From: a virus
IMG/VR virus record: IMGVR_UViG_3300025057_000029
Location: 1-33,042 of that record
Direction: 5' to 3' (one strand)
DNA length: 33,042 nucleotides
Positions 128-30,837 of the stretch are shown in pieces. The notes under the pieces were generated by a model, which was not told where the DNA came from, searched no databases, and worked only from the letters and a program-made list of their open reading frames with translations. A program made the translations under genes and the position numbers. Each line of letters opens with the position of its first letter. Position 1 is the stretch's first letter.

Positions 128-781
128 AAAGAACTCTAACGCTTTTGTCACACCGTAGATAGCTGCTAATAACGGACCAGCGAGTACTCCTATCAGAACC
201 TTCGCCACACCATTCATGCTTTCAAACTTGGCGATAGCGTTTTGGATAGGTTTCTGAAAGGCAACGATGCCTGCTATGAGCAATCCTATCGCTGTAACGA
301 TTAACCCGATAGGGTTCATGCTCATTACAAAGTTCAATACCTTCTGCGCTTTTGCTTGTAGCTCAGTAACGTCTGTCAGCTTCTTCATAGCCACAGCAGC
401 AGCACCCATGTCTTTAATTCCCGTAGCAAATGCCATAGCCCCCATCACCTTTGTCATGGTTTCCTCAAACGCCTCCGACTCTACACCCGCTATGGCGATA
501 GCACCTTCAACCGCTGCGAAGCCTCCTGCTAATCCTGCGACCACATCCGTTGCGGCGGTTAATTTTTGCTCCATATCCATACCCTCAAAGGACGCCTCGA
601 GGTTTTTAACTTCGCTTTCAGTCTTAGATATTTCACGCGCCATTTTCTTAAATTCCTGCGTTCCTATTGGAATGGAATCTAATTCTTCGCGCATCTGCTC
701 GAGTTCGTTGTTAAGTTGCCCTAACGTCTTTGCAGACTTCGACCCGTTAATGTCTATTTCATATACTAACTTCTCTGCCAT
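1..781 (-). CDS. Tape-measure protein, N-terminal part (continues at 32820 on the circle)
   Basis: The start codon is at 781-779, one base after the TAA of the upstream tail gene, and the frame runs open to base 1. Joined to 32820-31490 it gives 2112 bp, or 703 residues plus stop. The N-terminus (MAEKLVYEIDINGSKSAKTL) leads into a predicted coiled coil. Hydrophobic, glycine- and alanine-rich helices follow (for example MNPIGLIVTAIGLLIAGIVA and VLIGVLAGPLLAAIYGVT), as in many tape-measure proteins that insert in the host membrane. The role is to set tail length and form the inner tail rod; at the usual 0.15 nm per residue the tail would be about 105 nm, which is an inference. Assignment rests on length, coiled coil and position after tail genes. 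Confidence 0.85.
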   Translation of the reverse strand, partial: MAEKLVYEIDINGSKSAKTLGQLNNELEQMREELDSIPIGTQEFKKMAREISKTESEVKNLEASFEGMDMEQKLTAATDVVAGLAGGFAAVEGAIAIAGVESEAFEETMTKVMGAMAFATGIKDMGAAAVAMKKLTDVTELQAKAQKVLNFVMSMNPIGLIVTAIGLLIAGIVAFQKPIQNAIAKFESMNGVAKVLIGVLAGPLLAAIYGVTKALEFFGVINSKTQNDAISAAEKRRRAEVKAHKERIKELNKEIDALDD

Positions 782-22844: not shown

Positions 22845-23068
22845 CCCATTTCCTTTAACTGATTCTTTATAAAGACCTCAACGTCCTTGTCCTCCCACGT
22901 TTCACCGTAGGACATTCTGTTCGGTAGTTCCATACCATACTCAGAACCGTCCTCAGAGGTAATGTGAACCCACACCGTACAAGTGTTGTTGTAGTGGTCT
23001 ATGACTTGCTTTATACGCCATTCGCTGACGTTGATAATAGCCGTGTAGTTGTCGTGTGTTATGTTCAT
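22841..23068 (-). CDS. Small protein paired with the lectin-like gene (copy 2)
   Basis: This 75-residue protein starts in an ATGA overlap with the lectin-like gene and ends in an ATGA overlap with the small membrane gene. It ends ETWEDKDVEVFIKNQLKEMG. The M.Y..TWED..V pattern also occurs near the end of the 78-residue protein at 23649-23885, which lies in the same relation to the other DUF1566 domain, so the two look like paralogues. It is acidic and beta-rich with a helical tail. A chaperone or tail-fibre accessory role is possible; no catalytic motif was seen. Confidence 0.55.
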   Translation of the reverse strand: MNITHDNYTAIINVSEWRIKQVIDHYNNTCTVWVHITSEDGSEYGMELPNRMSYGETWEDKDVEVFIKNQLKEMG

Positions 23069-23649
23069 AATCCTAACTCTGTAAAGGTGAATTGCCTTTT
23101 AACAATATAAGTTATCGTGTTTATCTTTAGATTTCGTGCAACGAACTGAACCGAATCGGAATACCTCATAGCGTATGTGTTATCACTAGGACTAGTGGTA
23201 GATGTCCAAGAGTCGTCCGTTATACTGAACGGCGTGTAGTTTAATCCGCTTTCGTAATTTACAAGTGTGTGTAACTCGCCAGCATTAGGCAAATACCAAT
23301 CGCTATAACTCCCTATTGTGTACGGCTGTCCACTCATTGCCGTAGCCCAATTAACTCCTGCACCACCCTGCACTACCCGATACCAACCGATCACGGTTTC
23401 CGCTATGTAGTTGGTAGTCGCCCAATCAATCACTATATCATTAGCATACGTCTGACCGCCTAACGTATCTGTGAATCTGTTGGTGTTTCCGAATGGATTG
23501 TTAAAGTCAAGTGTGGTAAAATCCGAACCTCTACCACGTTCTAAGTCACCATCGTCCCCCGTTGCATAACTTGTGGTCTGCCCTGTTTTGTAAGGGTTCG
23601 CTGAGTTATACCTTTCAGGGCATGGGTTTATTTTAATAGTAACAGCCAT
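23065..23649 (-). CDS. DUF1566 (Lcl) lectin-like receptor-binding candidate
   Basis: This 194-residue protein is a stand-alone copy of the domain at the end of the 653-residue gene. Over KTGQTTSY...NDIVIDW I count 45 of 56 identical residues, after which the copies diverge. Marks of DUF1566 include DWYLPNAGELHTL and WTSTTSP. The fold is C-type-lectin-like and is common on surface-binding proteins. I infer a tail-tip adhesin. Its N-terminus (MAVTIKINPCPERYN) replaces the long linker of the other copy. The ATG overlaps the previous gene by TAATG. Confidence 0.7.
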   Translation of the reverse strand: MAVTIKINPCPERYNSANPYKTGQTTSYATGDDGDLERGRGSDFTTLDFNNPFGNTNRFTDTLGGQTYANDIVIDWATTNYIAETVIGWYRVVQGGAGVNWATAMSGQPYTIGSYSDWYLPNAGELHTLVNYESGLNYTPFSITDDSWTSTTSPSDNTYAMRYSDSVQFVARNLKINTITYIVKRQFTFTELGL

Positions 23650-23888: not shown

Positions 23889-25850
23889 TTATGATAATGT
23901 TGTTCCTGTTACTGTGAATGTGCGGCAGGGGATTGCTCTGTATGATGCAGATGTGTTTGTTTTAATTCTATCCCTTACCATGTTATTGTTTGTATTTTGA
24001 AAAGTCAAAGCATTTCCAGTAGCCGCTGCATTTGTTGTTGAACTCCAAAAAACAATTCCCGTACTAAAATTAAAAGGCGCATAATTCAAAGGGTTTGAAG
24101 CATTTGAATTTTTTAAGTTTATCAACTCATTTATATTAGGTAATCTCCAACCGCTCGTAAATGTTCCAATAGTAAAATTCAAAGAATTATCAATTGCGTC
24201 ATTCCAATTAAAATCAGTGTATGTTCCTCTTAACCTATAATACCCCAATACCGTACTACCATCATAAGTGCTCCAATCAATTACTATATCATTCGTGTAG
24301 GTCGTACCCCCTAATTCATCTGTAAATCTATCTGTATTACCAAAGGGGTTATTTGAAGCCAACGTGTAAAAGTCCGTTGCCCTGCCTACCTCCAAATCCC
24401 CATCGTCTCCTGTTCTATAAGAAGTGGTTTGCCCCGTTTTCATCAGCGTAGCACCAACTGGCGCACCGCCAGCAGCAGGCACTTCAATCGTTACCGTATT
24501 GCCAACAATACTTACAGCATTAGGAGTTACAGGGCTACTTCCATCAGTAACATCAATATCAATAGTCTTAGCACTTACAACCGTACCTTCCAAAGAACTA
24601 TTGACGTTTACATTTGAATCAGGGACAACCAACGTGCCACCGCTTTCAATCGTATCTGTATAGCTTGCATCGCTGTTTTCTACATTAGCATCGGGTGCAG
24701 TAATATCTTGCGCTTCCGTTGCAGGAACATTCGTAGTGGATAGCGTATTATTCGCTGTATCTTTTAGCGTAATCACACTATCGTCAACCCTCCAATACTG
24801 CCCTTGCAAGCTGCCTATTTGATCGCTTGTATTTTCTTTTCTAACCTCAATCGAATCACTATCTCCGCTCGGTATCGTAGCTACTTGTGTGCTGTTGATG
24901 CTGAATGTCGCATCAGGTGCAGTTATGTCGTCACTTGTTCCGCTCGGTATATTGGTCGTACTTAAAGTAGTGCCGTCCGTGTTTTTCAAAACAGCAGTAG
25001 CATCATCGCAATAAGTGCTTATATCAATTTGTTGATTCTCATAAACAGGAAAGGTCAATGTTTGCTGCAACACATCGTTTTGGTCCACCACGTTGATGGT
25101 TTCATCGGGAGCAACAATTGCATCACTATCGCCACTTGGAATAGCCCCTGTATCTATTTGAGTTGACAGCGTGTTCTCTAACGTCCAAGACGCATCAGGT
25201 GCGGTGATTATTTCGCTATCCCCCGCAGGAATTGCGGTGGTTGAAATAGTAGTGCCATCTGTATTCTTTAGAATAGCAGTAGCGTCCCCGCTCGCAGGAA
25301 TCGTATAACTCCCACCGCTTGCAACGGTAGTATTAACCGATCCGTCAGCGTTTAGAATTGTAACAGGCGCACACGCGGGGCTTAAATCCATTTCCAAATC
25401 GTAGGACGAATCTAAAGGAATAGAACATAAGTCCGTTGGGTCCTGGATTGAAAACGTAAAGTCTGCAAACCAACCAAAGACGCTTTCGTTTTCTTTGTAC
25501 TCAAACCATTGAGCGCTTGGTCGGTTGTCGCCCAAAGTGATAAACGACCGCCAGCGTTTAGAACGCATTACATTGTAAACGTCCTTTAGTATCTGCGCGG
25601 TGTCGCTCTGTACGTCGTCGTAATTTTCTCTCCCGTCACGTACTAAATCACTGATAAAAATGGTTACAGTTAACTCAGTTGTCAGGTTGCTCATGGTGGC
25701 ATTTTGCACCGTTACAACCATCGAAGGGTGCGTTAAAGCATTCCCGTTGTAAGCGTCCACAAACCGCCCCCAATAGAACGAATTTAATTGCTCATGCGCC
25801 TCAAACAACTCTTGAAACTGATCCCGTATTTTATTTACACTATTCAGCAT
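23889..25850 (-). CDS. Chimeric tail protein: terminator-like domain, repeats and DUF1566 lectin
   Basis: This 653-residue protein has three parts. Residues 1-150 (MLNSVNKIRDQFQELFEAHE, then WFADFTFSIQDPTDLCSIPL) resemble the tail-terminator or completion proteins that follow the connector in Bacteroidota phages. Residues 150-450 are repeats of a pattern like DGTTLSTTNIPSGTSDDITAPD, interrupted and degenerate. Residues 470-653 are a DUF1566/Lcl domain (GWRLPN at 568-573, FWSSTT at 601-606), a lectin-like fold. It overlaps the connector gene by 7 bp. The C-terminal third looks more A+T-rich than the rest, hinting at domain exchange. It is probably a receptor-binding tail component. Confidence 0.65.
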   Translation of the reverse strand: MLNSVNKIRDQFQELFEAHEQLNSFYWGRFVDAYNGNALTHPSMVVTVQNATMSNLTTELTVTIFISDLVRDGRENYDDVQSDTAQILKDVYNVMRSKRWRSFITLGDNRPSAQWFEYKENESVFGWFADFTFSIQDPTDLCSIPLDSSYDLEMDLSPACAPVTILNADGSVNTTVASGGSYTIPASGDATAILKNTDGTTISTTAIPAGDSEIITAPDASWTLENTLSTQIDTGAIPSGDSDAIVAPDETINVVDQNDVLQQTLTFPVYENQQIDISTYCDDATAVLKNTDGTTLSTTNIPSGTSDDITAPDATFSINSTQVATIPSGDSDSIEVRKENTSDQIGSLQGQYWRVDDSVITLKDTANNTLSTTNVPATEAQDITAPDANVENSDASYTDTIESGGTLVVPDSNVNVNSSLEGTVVSAKTIDIDVTDGSSPVTPNAVSIVGNTVTIEVPAAGGAPVGATLMKTGQTTSYRTGDDGDLEVGRATDFYTLASNNPFGNTDRFTDELGGTTYTNDIVIDWSTYDGSTVLGYYRLRGTYTDFNWNDAIDNSLNFTIGTFTSGWRLPNINELINLKNSNASNPLNYAPFNFSTGIVFWSSTTNAAATGNALTFQNTNNNMVRDRIKTNTSASYRAIPCRTFTVTGTTLS

Positions 25851-26377
25851 TTCGGTCTGTTACCTTTTACGAACATGAAACTCTTAGAATTGCCTTGCTT
25901 TTCAGGCTTCATCTGCTCGGCTTTTGTTGGGTCGTAATCATCGTACTCAGGGAACGAACTTTTATTATCCAACAAATACCCAATCATTCGATTTTTGTAG
26001 AAACTTGCGTCTTTGCGTACTTCGTCCCGTAAATACTCCACTTCGTCAACTGTCGAAGGTTGCCATTCGGGGTCTTGGCTTCGACCTACCCCTGAGTTTC
26101 TTGCTTTGAAAGTGATATGAGGAAAACACTTCATTTCTACATACGCAGCCATGCAAGGCACTATGTAATTATTCAACAATGTTTGGTAAACACCCGTTAC
26201 CGTTCCCGCTTCTACTTTGTTAAGCATAGAAACATACAGCGGTGTGCCTAAAATCGGTTGAATAGTCATATCCTGAACCCTGCGTATCATTTTAGAAACC
26301 GTTTCCGATGAAACGTTCTTAGACAACACCATATAGTCGTCTAACTGCCCTGCGTTTATTAAATACCTAAACTCCAT
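25844..26377 (-). CDS. Head-tail connector (DUF6712-like)
   Basis: This 177-residue, helical protein begins MEFRYLINAGQLDDYMVLSK, with SETVSKMIRRVQDMTIQPIL, LNNYIVPCMAAYVEMKCFPH and a late EYLRDEVRKDASFYKNRMIG. The pattern of a short N-terminus, a ..MI...Q...I.PILG..LY segment and a C-terminal helix matches the DUF6712 group that follows portal genes in Bacteroidota phages and is thought to be a head-completion adaptor. It starts in a TAATG overlap with the portal, which supports this role. It ends with a short basic tail. Confidence 0.65.
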   Translation of the reverse strand: MEFRYLINAGQLDDYMVLSKNVSSETVSKMIRRVQDMTIQPILGTPLYVSMLNKVEAGTVTGVYQTLLNNYIVPCMAAYVEMKCFPHITFKARNSGVGRSQDPEWQPSTVDEVEYLRDEVRKDASFYKNRMIGYLLDNKSSFPEYDDYDPTKAEQMKPEKQGNSKSFMFVKGNRPKC

Positions 26378-28197
26378 TACCTTTCAATTAAAAGTTGCGA
26401 CCATGAGTGACGGCAAAACGGTTTGTTTTTACCGCCATCGTTCCACCATCCACCCCTATAAGTCCACACGTCACGACCTACACGGGTGGAAATAGTGCTG
26501 ATTTCTTCTCTTGTAAACACCTTTCCGCTTCTCAATAAAGTCCTGCAAAAGTCCCGCGTTCGCCCTTGCCCTAAATCGGGCGGACCTTCAACGCCTGGTG
26601 TCTTTACATATTCATAGACTATCTCGAAAGACCTCTGTTCCTTAGATACTTCGTCCAACCCGTCGGGTGTTACGTTGCCATCCGAATCAATGAACCCCGA
26701 AGATGTAAGCGCATCAATGATCTGCCGTACTTCTACCTGAGTGATCCCAAGTGAACGGGCTATCTTCTTAACTGAATCGCCATTTTCAATGCCTATCAAT
26801 ACACCTAAGTCACGACCGTCTACGAATTTATGTCCTTTTAATTCCTTTTCAAACGTGTCGAGTTCTTCAGAAGTAAACACCGCTGGCAAATTCCTTTCTG
26901 CTATTACCTTAAACTTGCTCTTTTCTTCCCCGACCTTCATCAACTCGTTTAACACAGGGTCGCCTTCTTCCTCCGTAGGCTGTTCGGCAGGCTTTTCGGT
27001 AGGCTCTATTCCGAACGCTTCTAAAACTTGCTCGTTAGACAGTGCGTTTACAAGTTTAGTGGCGACCACTTGCGGTGCTTTTTGGATCTTCTCTAACAGT
27101 GAATCCGATTCCTTTACACTCAATGGAGAATCGGGTAAGCACAATTTAATCTCACCCTCTACACCTGCAATCTGCATAAGGTACTTTAGAGGCACTTTAA
27201 GAAACTGGTGCGCTGCTTTTACATATCCTTCTACAAATGCGTTAAACCCTACCTGTAACTCGTTAGAATTGCCTAAAGAACCAGGTGTTTGTACTCCAAA
27301 TAGCGCAGGTGTTGTAATCGAATGAGAATATAGAATAGACTTGGTTACCTGTTCGTACTGATTAGCGTACCTATCGGGAAGGTCGTTACCAACCAAAGAA
27401 TTTATTGATACATCTTCTTCTCCAAATGTCACCAATAGACTGCCTGACGCATCGCGGTTAGTACCGCCCGTTTGAATTTCGTCCCTAATCTCATCTTCGT
27501 CCTCTGCGTTTTCAGGTCGCCCGTCCCTAAAGTGGATGTGCGTGCCTGACTTGAATCCATTGATTACCTCATAAAATCCGAAGTAGTTAATTTCGGCTTC
27601 GGTCATCATTGCAGGAATACCACCTGAATACAAAGGCTTAGGATATACCCCTAAATCGTTTTTGTCGTAACTCTTTGTCTCGCTTGGAAAGTAAAGAACC
27701 ATTTTCCCGCGCGGGTTCTCAGGATCATAAGCAGGGTATTCTTTTATTCCAAGTTCTGACTGATTCTCCCAATTCTTGCAATGCCAAAACGTTGAATAAT
27801 CCTTGTTGGTTCTTAATTCATCGAATCCTATCGGCTCAAAGTAACTAAAATCACCCGCAAGGTCAAAGCATACCAATATAGCACATCCGTTGTACCTTTC
27901 GCGGTCGTTTGTTATTGCTTCGTATAACTCTTGTAGTTTATACTCGCCCTTTACGTTGTTGGCAAAACTTGCAAACGCTATTTCATCGCCCTCAAACTTT
28001 AACCCCGCTGAAGTAATATAATTGACCTTAGAGTTAAGGATGTTAGCGTGCATAGAACTTTCATCCGCAAGCCTGTTAAGGAACTGCGGGTAGTCGTTCT
28101 TTCTGCCCCATGCAATTCCGTAAGTGCCTTTAACCTCTCGCGGCTCAGGTACTTTTTTAGTTACGCTCCAATCGGTGCTAAATTTTAATTTCTTCAT
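26377..28197 (-). CDS. Portal protein with embedded winged helix and a Cys/His C-terminal domain
   Basis: This 606-residue protein has the portal plan of Bacteroidota phages in residues 1-400: KKLKFSTDWSVTKKV, DYPQFLNRLADESSMHANIL, ITTPALFGVQTPGSLGNSNE, then a long helix QVGFNAFVEGYVKAAH. Portals form the dodecameric ring through which DNA passes. Residues 473-515 (GDSVKKIARSLGITQVEVRQ, then IIDALTSSGFIDSDGNVT) look like a winged helix-turn-helix. Residues 528-600 (RTRDFCRTLLRSGKVFTREE, YRGGWWNDGGKNKPFCRHSW) form a Cys/His domain seen at the ends of Mu gpF-type head proteins. It overlaps both neighbours by ATGA and TAATG. Confidence 0.82.
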   Translation of the reverse strand: MKKLKFSTDWSVTKKVPEPREVKGTYGIAWGRKNDYPQFLNRLADESSMHANILNSKVNYITSAGLKFEGDEIAFASFANNVKGEYKLQELYEAITNDRERYNGCAILVCFDLAGDFSYFEPIGFDELRTNKDYSTFWHCKNWENQSELGIKEYPAYDPENPRGKMVLYFPSETKSYDKNDLGVYPKPLYSGGIPAMMTEAEINYFGFYEVINGFKSGTHIHFRDGRPENAEDEDEIRDEIQTGGTNRDASGSLLVTFGEEDVSINSLVGNDLPDRYANQYEQVTKSILYSHSITTPALFGVQTPGSLGNSNELQVGFNAFVEGYVKAAHQFLKVPLKYLMQIAGVEGEIKLCLPDSPLSVKESDSLLEKIQKAPQVVATKLVNALSNEQVLEAFGIEPTEKPAEQPTEEEGDPVLNELMKVGEEKSKFKVIAERNLPAVFTSEELDTFEKELKGHKFVDGRDLGVLIGIENGDSVKKIARSLGITQVEVRQIIDALTSSGFIDSDGNVTPDGLDEVSKEQRSFEIVYEYVKTPGVEGPPDLGQGRTRDFCRTLLRSGKVFTREEISTISTRVGRDVWTYRGGWWNDGGKNKPFCRHSWSQLLIER

Positions 28198-28574
28198 ATC
28201 TTATACACGAAATTGTCATTGTCAGGCGCGTTACCTGAATACGTTGTTGGATCGGGAGCAATAACATCGACTATCCCTTCTTCTACAAGTTCATCCGCTA
28301 AGTCAGGGTCTGTATTTGTTGGCGATGTCTGTGCATATACCTTGTAAAACCACTGACCAGGATAAGTTAAAGTAACCGTTGTTCCTTCGGTTATCTCAAA
28401 CTTGTTATATCTCCTTCTCTGCGGTGCCGTCGCTGTGTCCGCTATTATCACCGCCACGTCCGTCTTTTGCTGTGGGTGGTTGAACACCCAAAGATACGTC
28501 GGATCGCTTATTGTTGTCAGCTCGCTTAGTGTTACCCTTACGTCGTTTGACTGTCCCTGCACTATTTTTATCAT
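28194..28574 (-). CDS. Beta-rich minor structural protein
   Basis: This 126-residue protein starts at ATG 28574 (MIKIVQGQSNDVRVTLSELT). The earlier in-frame ATG at 28610 is less likely because this start fits the known family and a frame on the other side is coding. Related small beta-rich proteins, beginning MIK..GQSN or similar and containing a RYN.F.ITE segment (RRRYNKFEITEGTTVTL), recur in Bacteroidota phages. They are thought to be minor virion proteins with an Ig-like fold. It overlaps the upstream reading frame by 170 bp in the +1 register and the portal by ATGA. Confidence 0.6.
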   Translation of the reverse strand: MIKIVQGQSNDVRVTLSELTTISDPTYLWVFNHPQQKTDVAVIIADTATAPQRRRYNKFEITEGTTVTLTYPGQWFYKVYAQTSPTNTDPDLADELVEEGIVDVIAPDPTTYSGNAPDNDNFVYKI

Positions 28575-28698
28575 TTTCAAAGTATTTAGCGACCAATCCG
28601 AACGCCTCAAAGTATCGGAAATTCTCCATTGTAACCTCCAACAACCCCACAGGTTTAAGATACACCTGTTTTCCTTTATATTCGTTTCTTACCTTCAT
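28405..28698 (-). CDS. Small basic protein overlapping the next gene
   Basis: This 97-residue frame begins at ATG 28698 (MKVRNEYKGKQVYLKPVGLL) directly after a terminator-like hairpin. The first 45 residues (EVTMENFRYFEAFGLVAKYF) look like a real small domain common between tail-tube and portal genes. The rest (KRRKGNTKRADNNKRSDVSL then GGDNSGHSDGT) is low-complexity and overlaps the next gene by 170 bp in another register, so it may be a random extension. Independent translation with an overlap is the simple reading; frameshifting is possible but no classic slippery site was found. Confidence 0.5.
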   Translation of the reverse strand: MKVRNEYKGKQVYLKPVGLLEVTMENFRYFEAFGLVAKYFENDKNSAGTVKRRKGNTKRADNNKRSDVSLGVQPPTAKDGRGGDNSGHSDGTAEKEI

Positions 28699-29344: not shown

Positions 29345-30310
29345 TTACGACCCGCCTAAGTTCCACTTAACAATCTGATCTGCGAAAGCATAGTTCACAT
29401 CTACGTAGAACTGAATACGTAGGTAGATTGCATCGTCCTTCTGATGGTAGAATACTTCTGCGCTTCCTTCGTCGCCTGATGTACCCAAGAATAGGTTTTC
29501 AGTGGATGTAGCGTAGATTCCGTACTGACCCGCTGAACCTGAAAGACCTGGCACAGCCTGAACTGTTACGTTCGTTCCTGGAAGAGTCAATCGGTTATTC
29601 TCATAGTCAACCATTGAGAAGTTAAAGTAGTTGCTATCAAACAGGTCATCTTGCAGAAGGTTGAAAGCATCCAATCCACAGAACATGATTCCCGTTCCGT
29701 CTACCTGAATTGCAGAAGGAAGGTCACGCGCTACCAGTCTAAACTGGCTGTATGCGTTAGATGAAGTCAGCGAAGATGTACCCGCAGTGTTAGCGTTAAT
29801 TGCGCTTGGGCTTTCGTCAATCTTCTTTTTCAGACCGTTGATAAACGCAAGGTTACCCGCGCCCGCCTTGTCGCCTCTCCACAAAAGGTTGTCATACTCA
29901 AAGGAGTGCTTGTCAAGGATGTAATTAACAACCTGATCTTGGAAAGGAAGTTCTTTCATTTCAGCAGCAGCACCCATAGGAAGGTTCTTCTGTGGGTAGA
30001 AACCTTTGATGTCGTCGTTACAGAACTTCTTGAACACCATAACCTTTACAGGGTCAAGAAATCGCTGTCCCCAATCGTCGTTTCCTGATGCGGTAGCCTC
30101 ACAAGCAGCAGCCTGATATGTTACTGTTGAATCAAACTTTTTGATTTTCTCATTTCCACCACGTACTTCCTGTGCAGTCAAAAGTGCCGCTGTACGTCCT
30201 GTGAATACCGCACGACGTGCGATGTCCTGTGAATCTTCATCGGTGTACGGTGTCAAGTCCGCAACATCCCAATCGAAGTTTTGCTTTAATGTCTTTTTAA
30301 GTGTTCCCAT
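29345..30310 (-). CDS. Major capsid protein (HK97 fold)
   Basis: This 321-residue protein (MGTLKKTLKQNFDWDVADL) follows a protease and a scaffold gene directly. Segments such as DPVKVMVFKKFCNDDIKGFY, LLWRGDKAGAGNLAFINGLK and the late LRIQFYVDVNYAFADQIVKW fit an HK97-type coat protein with a long helix, an E-loop-like region and a P-domain. No unusual insertion is visible. Length is typical. Conserved order (protease, scaffold, coat) is the strongest evidence. Its start overlaps the scaffold end by a shared A. Confidence 0.85.
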   Translation of the reverse strand: MGTLKKTLKQNFDWDVADLTPYTDEDSQDIARRAVFTGRTAALLTAQEVRGGNEKIKKFDSTVTYQAAACEATASGNDDWGQRFLDPVKVMVFKKFCNDDIKGFYPQKNLPMGAAAEMKELPFQDQVVNYILDKHSFEYDNLLWRGDKAGAGNLAFINGLKKKIDESPSAINANTAGTSSLTSSNAYSQFRLVARDLPSAIQVDGTGIMFCGLDAFNLLQDDLFDSNYFNFSMVDYENNRLTLPGTNVTVQAVPGLSGSAGQYGIYATSTENLFLGTSGDEGSAEVFYHQKDDAIYLRIQFYVDVNYAFADQIVKWNLGGS

Positions 30311-30837
30311 TATTTTCTGTAATAAGCTGGATTAACGTTTTTCATTTTTACTGGCGCTTTCTGCTTTTCAGGCTTTGGTGCTTCCTTACCAAACTTTTCA
30401 ATCTTTTCGTTGACCTCTGCAATCTGAGCTGCAAATTCCTCTTTTGCCTTTGCAATCTCTTTAGACTGTTTTACAATCTTTGCTTCGTACAAGTCAAGAG
30501 TTTCGATTAGGTTTTTCACTTCCTCTTTTGAAAGTGTTACCTCCATTTCTTCCTCTTCTTCGTCTTTTGCTTCGGTTGGCGCAATAACCTCAGTTACCAC
30601 TCCGTCAACGTCAAGAACAACTTGTGTTCCTTCGGGGGCGTCGCCTCCTGTTACAATGTGAGTGCCTTCGGGTGCTGGTGTCATTTCTTCTTCAGTCATA
30701 ACGAACACTTCCGTTCCGACTGCGAGTTCACCTTCCCAAAAGATTTCGACGGCTTCTTCGCCTTCGCCAACAAGAGCAGACTCAAACTTTTCACGGTTCG
30801 CCATCTCCTGCGCGCGGTTTTTCTTTAATTTGAACAT
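30310..30837 (-). CDS. Scaffold-like protein
   Basis: This 175-residue, highly acidic protein precedes the coat gene. The first part has a repeated W.GEL..GT pattern (EIFWEGELAVGTEVF, then PEGTHIVTGGDAPEGTQVVL), as in Bacteroidota phage scaffolds. A coiled coil (VKNLIETLDLYEAKIVKQSK, then EIAKAKEEFAAQIAEV) and a basic tail (PVKMKNVNPAYYRK) follow. Scaffolds bind coat subunits during prohead assembly and are then cut away by the protease encoded just upstream. The cleavage site cannot be seen. Confidence 0.7.
   Translation of the reverse strand: MFKLKKNRAQEMANREKFESALVGEGEEAVEIFWEGELAVGTEVFVMTEEEMTPAPEGTHIVTGGDAPEGTQVVLDVDGVVTEVIAPTEAKDEEEEEMEVTLSKEEVKNLIETLDLYEAKIVKQSKEIAKAKEEFAAQIAEVNEKIEKFGKEAPKPEKQKAPVKMKNVNPAYYRK

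What the first reader, a model, noticed from the sequence alone, without database searches (positions are those of the whole stretch)
26377..28197. Winged helix inserted in the portal gene before a Cys/His end domain
Residues 473-515 read as a winged HTH and 528-600 as an F-C...C-R-H domain of Mu gpF type. A DNA-binding element on a portal could act in packaging start or ejection, and the end domain might be a nuclease, toxin or metal-binding unit delivered with DNA.
Basis: partly seen in the sequence, partly recalled or inferred. Interest (0 to 1): 0.58.

Follow-up and report, generated by a model that had tools for sequence, protein, structure and literature searches.

The report
Portal protein with swappable winged-helix tail
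A phage portal protein carries an extra tail made of a winged-helix fold and a small Cys/His head domain, and close relatives have exchanged that tail for one ending in a protease-like domain, so the inner end of the portal looks like an exchangeable docking site.

Summary
The 606-aa ORF on the minus strand (26377-28197) is a portal up to about residue 407. After a flexible linker come a real winged helix (457-523) and a Cys/His end domain (524-606). The winged helix matches MarR/CggR folds (VIA Z up to 10.5) and Lrp profiles (95.9%, 0 of 40 shuffles as good).

The end domain is not a PF04233 (MuF) member by direct tests. It is linked to MuF through standalone minor-head-like proteins, and the same metallopeptidase-like cargo sits behind this domain in portals and behind true MuF domains in other phages.

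In 148 related records, 128 have the winged helix, 14 have a peptidase-like cargo instead, 6 have neither, none has both. A tree forces at least 5 switches. One pair has nearly identical cores and downstream DNA but different tails. One cargo type brings a small companion gene in all 9 records with room to look.

DNA binding by the winged helix is unproven: its region is acidic (mean -4.6), while matched cellular HTHs are 0 to +4. I favour a docking or spacer role inside the capsid. No nuclease or toxin is seen in the window's own tail. This is a new variant of the known portal-MuF fusion.

The parts
26977..28197 (-). Portal fold, residues 1-407 (crown at its C-terminal end)
   Evidence: PHROG portal families; AF2 model against solved portals, VIA Z 19.4
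26965..27066 (-). Low-confidence linker, residues 378-411
   Evidence: pLDDT under 50 at 378-411 in the full model
26830..26964 (-). Conserved strand/helix segment leading into the extension, residues 412-456
   Evidence: Alignment of 27 relatives; helix 414-421, strand 430-436, helix 443-454 in the model
26629..26829 (-). Winged helix-turn-helix cassette, residues 457-523
   Evidence: VIA against PDB, Lrp profile comparison, Pfam hits in window and L009, absent from P12024-type and cargo-type portals
26380..26628 (-). MuF-like Cys/His end domain, residues 524-606
   Evidence: Invariant R548 F550 C551 I566 Y580 G582 G583 C595 H597 W599 in 24 aligned portals; bridge to MuF proteins
26545..26547 (-). 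Cys551, predicted metal ligand
   Evidence: Invariant; metal binding inferred
26407..26415 (-). C595-R596-H597, predicted metal ligands
   Evidence: C595 and H597 invariant, R596 in at least 90%; metal binding inferred
25844..26377 (-). Next gene after the portal, DUF6712 family; no cargo companion gene lies between
   Evidence: Pfam PF20459 E 4.8e-19; no companion hit in the window
28194..28610 (-). Gene before the portal, unknown; same place in L009
   Evidence: gene order in L009
29345..30310 (-). Probable major capsid protein (inferred from position)
   Evidence: phrog_11320 of unknown function E 1.6e-9; same order in L009
30883..31458 (-). Probable head protease (XkdF-like)
   Evidence: Pfam PF14550, 33.2 bits over cut-off 24

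Best explanation
The gene is a phage portal whose C-terminus, which in solved portals faces the inside of the head (recalled), has been extended by a fused MuF-like minor-head module. SHOWN by computation: portal fold to about 407, a low-confidence linker, a winged helix at 457-523 and a Cys/His end domain at 524-606; the winged helix is a cassette, and in relatives the whole tail is an exchangeable block. INFERRED: twelve tails line the inner mouth of the portal. The acidic winged helix acts as a protein-docking or spacer element that holds the end domain in place. The end domain, basic and probably metal-bound, does the MuF-like job, contacting packaged DNA and helping the start of ejection as SPP1 gp7 does as a separate protein. 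In cargo-form relatives the same end domain carries a peptidase-like effector, and no winged helix is present.
For: Solved portals stop matching where the extension begins. Winged helix by fold and profile. P12024L portal has the end domain without the winged helix. Winged-helix and cargo forms exclude each other: 128, 14 and 0 (both) of 148 records. Block swap between near-identical phages (L075 against L099). At least 5 switches forced on the tree. End domain bridges to MuF: end domain against L169/L180 97.6%, L169/L180 against MuF 35.9 with shuffled maximum 17.3. The same cargo sits on true MuF proteins. Charge: HTH region -4.6, end domain +4.3 on average. No separate MuF-like protein found in the window. 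SPP1 gp7 binds the portal, goes to the procapsid interior, and only about 25% of virions lacking it are infectious (PMC6316719, passages).
Against: No experiment. Direct end-domain against MuF profile comparison is no better than shuffles (25 of 60 as good). The helix 2-3 segment is mildly basic (window +2), which fits DNA contact. Stoichiometry differs: SPP1 has one to two gp7 copies per capsid (PMC5576092, passages), a fusion would give twelve. The AF2 model is a monomer, so docking partners are not seen.
Confidence: 0.5

Rival explanations
1. The winged helix binds DNA: it grips a genome end or the last-packaged turns at the portal mouth, acting in packaging start, DNA retention or ejection.
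For: Genuine Lrp/MarR-type winged helix; helix 2-3 mildly basic, window +2; K/R common at aligned positions 464, 481, 492 and 496 (16, 14, 14 and 11 of 21). SPP1 gp7 is called a DNA-binding protein in the title of a reference printed in PMC5576092; that reference itself was not read.
Against: Whole region net negative or neutral in 77 distinct sequences (-8 to 0), cellular controls 0 to +4; helix 3 mean +0.39 against +1.33; many surface positions of helix 3 vary.
Confidence: 0.3
2. The winged helix with the end domain is itself a delivered effector: cut from the portal by the head protease, ejected with the DNA, and acting on host or phage transcription.
For: It occupies the same exchangeable block as the peptidase-like cargo and never co-occurs with it; resembles Lrp/AsnC-type regulators; a probable head protease is encoded nearby.
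Against: The winged helix lies before the end domain, while cargo lies after it; acidic region; no cleavage site shown.
Confidence: 0.12
3. The helix-turn-helix is only a chance resemblance of crown helices.
For: In the window alone the Pfam hits are below cut-off and Foldseek gives no E <= 0.001.
Against: VIA Z about 10 at 2 A; Lrp profile match 0 of 40 shuffles; L009 passes two HTH cut-offs at the same place; solved portals stop matching near residue 407.
Confidence: 0.03

Closest known systems
Portal-MuF fusions of Microbacterium phages (PMC7302621, passages) and effector domains fused to MuF and portal domains (PMC5512222, PMC9503650, passages)
   Same: Portal and a MuF-like function in one gene; portal used as a carrier for head-packaged domains
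   Different: Here an Lrp-type winged helix is inserted, the MuF part is trimmed to a Cys/His end domain outside PF04233, and the tail swaps with a peptidase-like form
SPP1 gp7 / Mu gpF (MuF, PF04233)
   Same: End pattern of strand, R-x-x-[HC], G-K-[VI]-[FY], C-R-[CH] by eye; function tied to the portal
   Different: Separate proteins; ligand order H..C.C in most MuF rows against C..C.H here; no direct profile match
Nonlabens phage P12024L portal
   Same: Portal plus the same Cys/His end domain
   Different: No winged helix; about 50 residues follow the end domain
Flavobacterium phage vB_FspM_lotta8-1 gp028-gp029
   Same: Same metallopeptidase-like cargo and same companion gene as in cargo-form relatives
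   Different: Cargo sits on a standalone true MuF protein next to a separate gene with a Pfam PF06074 note
Lrp/AsnC and MarR winged helices
   Same: Fold and profile
   Different: Here acidic, in a virion protein, without a ligand domain

Membership tests
Phage portal protein (HK97/SPP1-type fold) | Portal fold and match to portal families | tested here: met
   VIA Z 19.4, Foldseek 2.4e-8; PHROG 11226 and 33693
Phage portal protein (HK97/SPP1-type fold) | Dodecameric ring at the packaging vertex | not testable with these tools
   Monomer model only
Winged helix-turn-helix | wHTH fold and profile similarity | tested here: met
   VIA Z up to 10.5; Lrp profile 95.9%, 0 of 40 shuffles
Pfam HTH families | Curated cut-off passed by the window protein | tested here: not met
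   Best PF24409 23.4 of 27 bits in the whole protein, 26.5 of 27 in the fragment; L009 passes HTH_24 and HTH_11
DNA-binding wHTH regulator | DNA binding | not testable with these tools
   Indirect only: acidic region, mildly basic helix 2-3
MuF (PF04233 Phage_Mu_F) | Pfam model over cut-off | tested here: not met
   No hit in the window
MuF (PF04233 Phage_Mu_F) | Direct profile-profile similarity above shuffles | tested here: not met
   Score 10.5, 25 of 60 shuffles as high
MuF-related (wider superfamily) | Link through intermediates | tested here: met
   End domain to L169/L180 97.6%; L169/L180 to MuF 35.9 against shuffled maximum 17.3; intermediates L208 and L218 hit PF04233 below cut-off
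MuF polymorphic toxin | Toxin or enzyme domain after the MuF domain | tested here: not met
   Window ends 9 residues after CRH; cargo is present in relatives

The most novel reading that the evidence does not exclude
The inner end of the portal is a polymorphic slot in which near-identical phages alternately place a winged-helix tail or a peptidase-like effector with a companion (immunity- or inhibitor-like) gene. On this reading the winged helix is itself a head-carried effector that acts on the incoming genome or on host transcription at the start of infection.
Probability: 0.13. Interest if true: 0.75.

Novelty: new variant of a known kind. Interest (0 to 1): 0.5.

Why it matters
Portals are usually treated as conserved rings. 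Here each portal subunit appears to carry a regulator-type fold into the head, and in relatives the tail is swapped as a block between near-identical phages for a peptidase-like effector. That would make the role of MuF-type proteins in ejection and effector delivery testable in one gene, by exchanging or deleting defined blocks.

Tried and rejected
Rejected: (1) a chance HTH in crown helices. (2) The HTH as a remnant of the MuF helical half: HTH against MuF scored 21.4 (16.6%; shuffled maximum 11.9, 0 of 40) over only 25 columns at the N-terminal end of MuF, against 46.5 for Lrp; weak, not excluded. (3) A nuclease at the end: no Pfam or PHROG hit to the end fragment. (4) Direct MuF membership. 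Led nowhere: single-sequence scans with the window portal in viral contigs and genome contigs; PDB sequence search (best E 0.069); viral scan with L169; cargo search in 395 genomes of the phylum, 0 hits and without a positive control; paper searches for winged helix plus portal (0 papers) and minor head plus metallopeptidase (0 papers).

Limits: relatives come from scans that keep the best 80 hits, so counts are of a sample; one search found at least 524 relatives and 80 were read, one search found 303 and kept 80. The scan used a cargo-form query and that the cargo itself, which raises the share of cargo forms. In one search, 16 loci were dropped as second copies of the same contig (or of P12024L) by a list I made by hand from the tables; the window itself is not among the 148. 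In the tree seven distant loci (L009 and the P12024 group) were left out on purpose, and the window was not in the input; in the tree the window sits on a long branch and its place is unsure.

Full report
WHAT IS THERE. The window is a 33,042-base IMG/VR virus record. The ORF at 26377-28197 (minus strand) encodes 606 aa. Residues to about 407 are a portal: PHROG portal families, a full-length model (pLDDT 72.7), and matches to solved portals of GTA, lambda and Haloferax tailed virus 1. In the 50 rows the aligned stretch ends at model residues 353-426, in most rows by 410. Residues 378-411 are low-confidence, which I read as a linker.

THE WINGED HELIX IS REAL. A model of residues 400-606 made from 26 sequences has pLDDT 81.3 and pTM 0.63. 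VIA-align puts model residues about 58-124 (window 457-523) on MarR, CggR and related repressors, Z about 9-10.5 at about 2 A over about 66 residues; Foldseek gave its best E at 0.016 and none at 0.001 or below. An HTH alignment of 21 portals against Lrp-size HTH proteins from genomes of the phylum of L009 scores 46.5 (95.9%), shuffled maximum 12.2 in 40. The relative L009, from a Bacteroidetes MAG, has full-length similarity (E 4e-64) and passes HTH_24 and HTH_11 cut-offs at the same place.

THE END DOMAIN. The Nonlabens phage P12024L portal has the Cys/His domain but no winged helix (end-domain alignment E 5e-5). R548, F550, C551, I566, Y580, G582, G583, C595, H597 and W599 are invariant in 24 aligned portals; 156 of 157 relatives keep the pattern, the other being cut by its contig end. 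Direct tests for MuF fail: no PF04233 hit, and profile comparison with MuF domains from 23 genome loci plus Mu gpF is no better than shuffles (25 of 60). Two standalone proteins, L169 (300 aa) and L180 (282 aa), share the end domain (97.6%), and their profile matches MuF over most of the MuF domain (score 35.9; reversed 11.5; shuffled maximum 17.3, 0 of 60). Further relatives of L169 hit PF04233 below its cut-off: L208 E 7e-5 and L218 E 0.002. L220 carries a CdiA_C domain over cut-off at its end. So the end domain is MuF-like and reached through intermediates; I do not file it as a PF04233 member.

THE TAIL IS AN EXCHANGEABLE BLOCK. Scans gave at least 524 relatives, of which 80 were read, and 80 loci were kept from 303. 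Of 166 portal ORFs, 138 have winged helix and end domain, 12 have the end domain, no winged helix and a C-terminal extension of 198 residues or more, and 7 have the end domain without either; the remaining 9 lack a detected end domain (7 of them cut by contig ends). After removing second copies of the same contigs and adding loci: 148 records, 128 winged helix, 10 cargo type A, 4 cargo type B, 6 neither, 0 with both. Type A has HEMxH and NEFHAE, type B HELRH; Pfam gives only weak metallopeptidase hits, all below cut-off. Two trees of the portal core need 4 switches for 4 cargo rows of 46 and 6, of which 5 are forced, for 7 cargo rows of 49. L075 (type B) and L099 (winged helix) have nearly identical cores (27-30 of 30 residues per block up to about residue 360), then diverge, and the downstream DNA is about 97% identical again. 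I read this as a recent block exchange.

COMPANION GENE AND MuF CARGO. A small gene (64-65 aa in those read) directly follows the portal in 6 of 6 type A loci with room, 0 of 124 winged-helix loci, 0 of 3 type B and 0 of 7 loci with neither; three further type A records have it too (L227-L229), making 9 of 9 type A records with room. It has no Pfam match. In Flavobacterium phage lotta8-1, gp028 (annotated structural protein, with a PF04233 note by sequence similarity) is a true MuF protein with the same type A cargo (E 4e-27; MuF model E 7e-26), followed by the 66-aa companion gp029. MuF proteins in five more viral contigs carry a more distant version of the cargo (E 4e-9 to 7e-9) without a detected companion. 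The same cargo on MuF and on this end domain supports that the end domain does a MuF-like job.

DOES THE WINGED HELIX BIND DNA? The region has net charge -4.6 on average in 77 distinct sequences (range -8 to 0; window -5); 17 cellular HTH hits with the same model are 0 to +4. The helix 2-3 segment is +0.96 in portals, +2.33 in 15 controls and +2 in the window. The end domain is +4.3 on average and +5 in the window. This weighs against, but does not exclude, DNA contact by the winged helix. My committed reading is a docking or spacer role, with any DNA contact by the end domain.

LITERATURE (passages only, unless stated). MuF genes lie next to portal genes and often carry toxins (PMC5576092; PMC3482391). 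Portal-MuF fusions are reported in Microbacterium phages (PMC7302621). Effector domains fused to MuF and portal domains are reported in PMC5512222 and PMC9503650. SPP1 gp7 is targeted to the procapsid by the portal, and only about 25% of virions without it are infectious (PMC6316719). lotta8-1 comes from PMC7077304, whose text held no occurrence of 'mass spectrometry'. I found no paper on a winged helix in a portal in searches (search listings only), which does not prove absence. That the portal crown faces the head interior and that portals are dodecamers is recalled, not from a call.

VERDICT. Observation confirmed, interpretation partly supported. It is a new variant of a known kind (portal-MuF-like fusion) with a winged-helix cassette and a tail that is swappable in relatives.

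Noticed in passing
L073, L093, L094, L095, L128, L155, L227, L228, L229 (portal 3' ends): HTH-less portals of the same family end in a HEMxH/NEFHAE metallopeptidase-like domain and are followed by a small gene (64-65 aa where read), a candidate immunity or inhibitor protein.
   Followed up: partly
L236:7125-8853 (Flavobacterium phage lotta8-1 gp028-gp029): A true MuF protein with the same cargo, followed by the same companion gene, in an isolated phage: a practical laboratory system.
   Followed up: partly
L220, L215, L218: Standalone proteins with the FC...CRH end domain and extra C-terminal stretches; L220 carries CdiA_C over its Pfam cut-off.
   Followed up: partly
23065-23649 and 23889-25850 (-): Two neighbouring genes share a similar stretch (TGDDGDLE...NNPFGNT.RFTD.LGG), seen by eye; possibly a duplicated tail or receptor-binding domain.
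   Followed up: no
30310-30837 (-): Gene between protease and probable capsid gene with a weak, below cut-off HAD_SAK_2 hit (E 9.5e-4); by position perhaps a scaffold or head protein.
   Followed up: no
L012-L091, residues about 380-440 of the portals: Many relatives carry an extra 'DVAKSALNGAQIASL...' segment before the tail that the window portal lacks.
   Followed up: no
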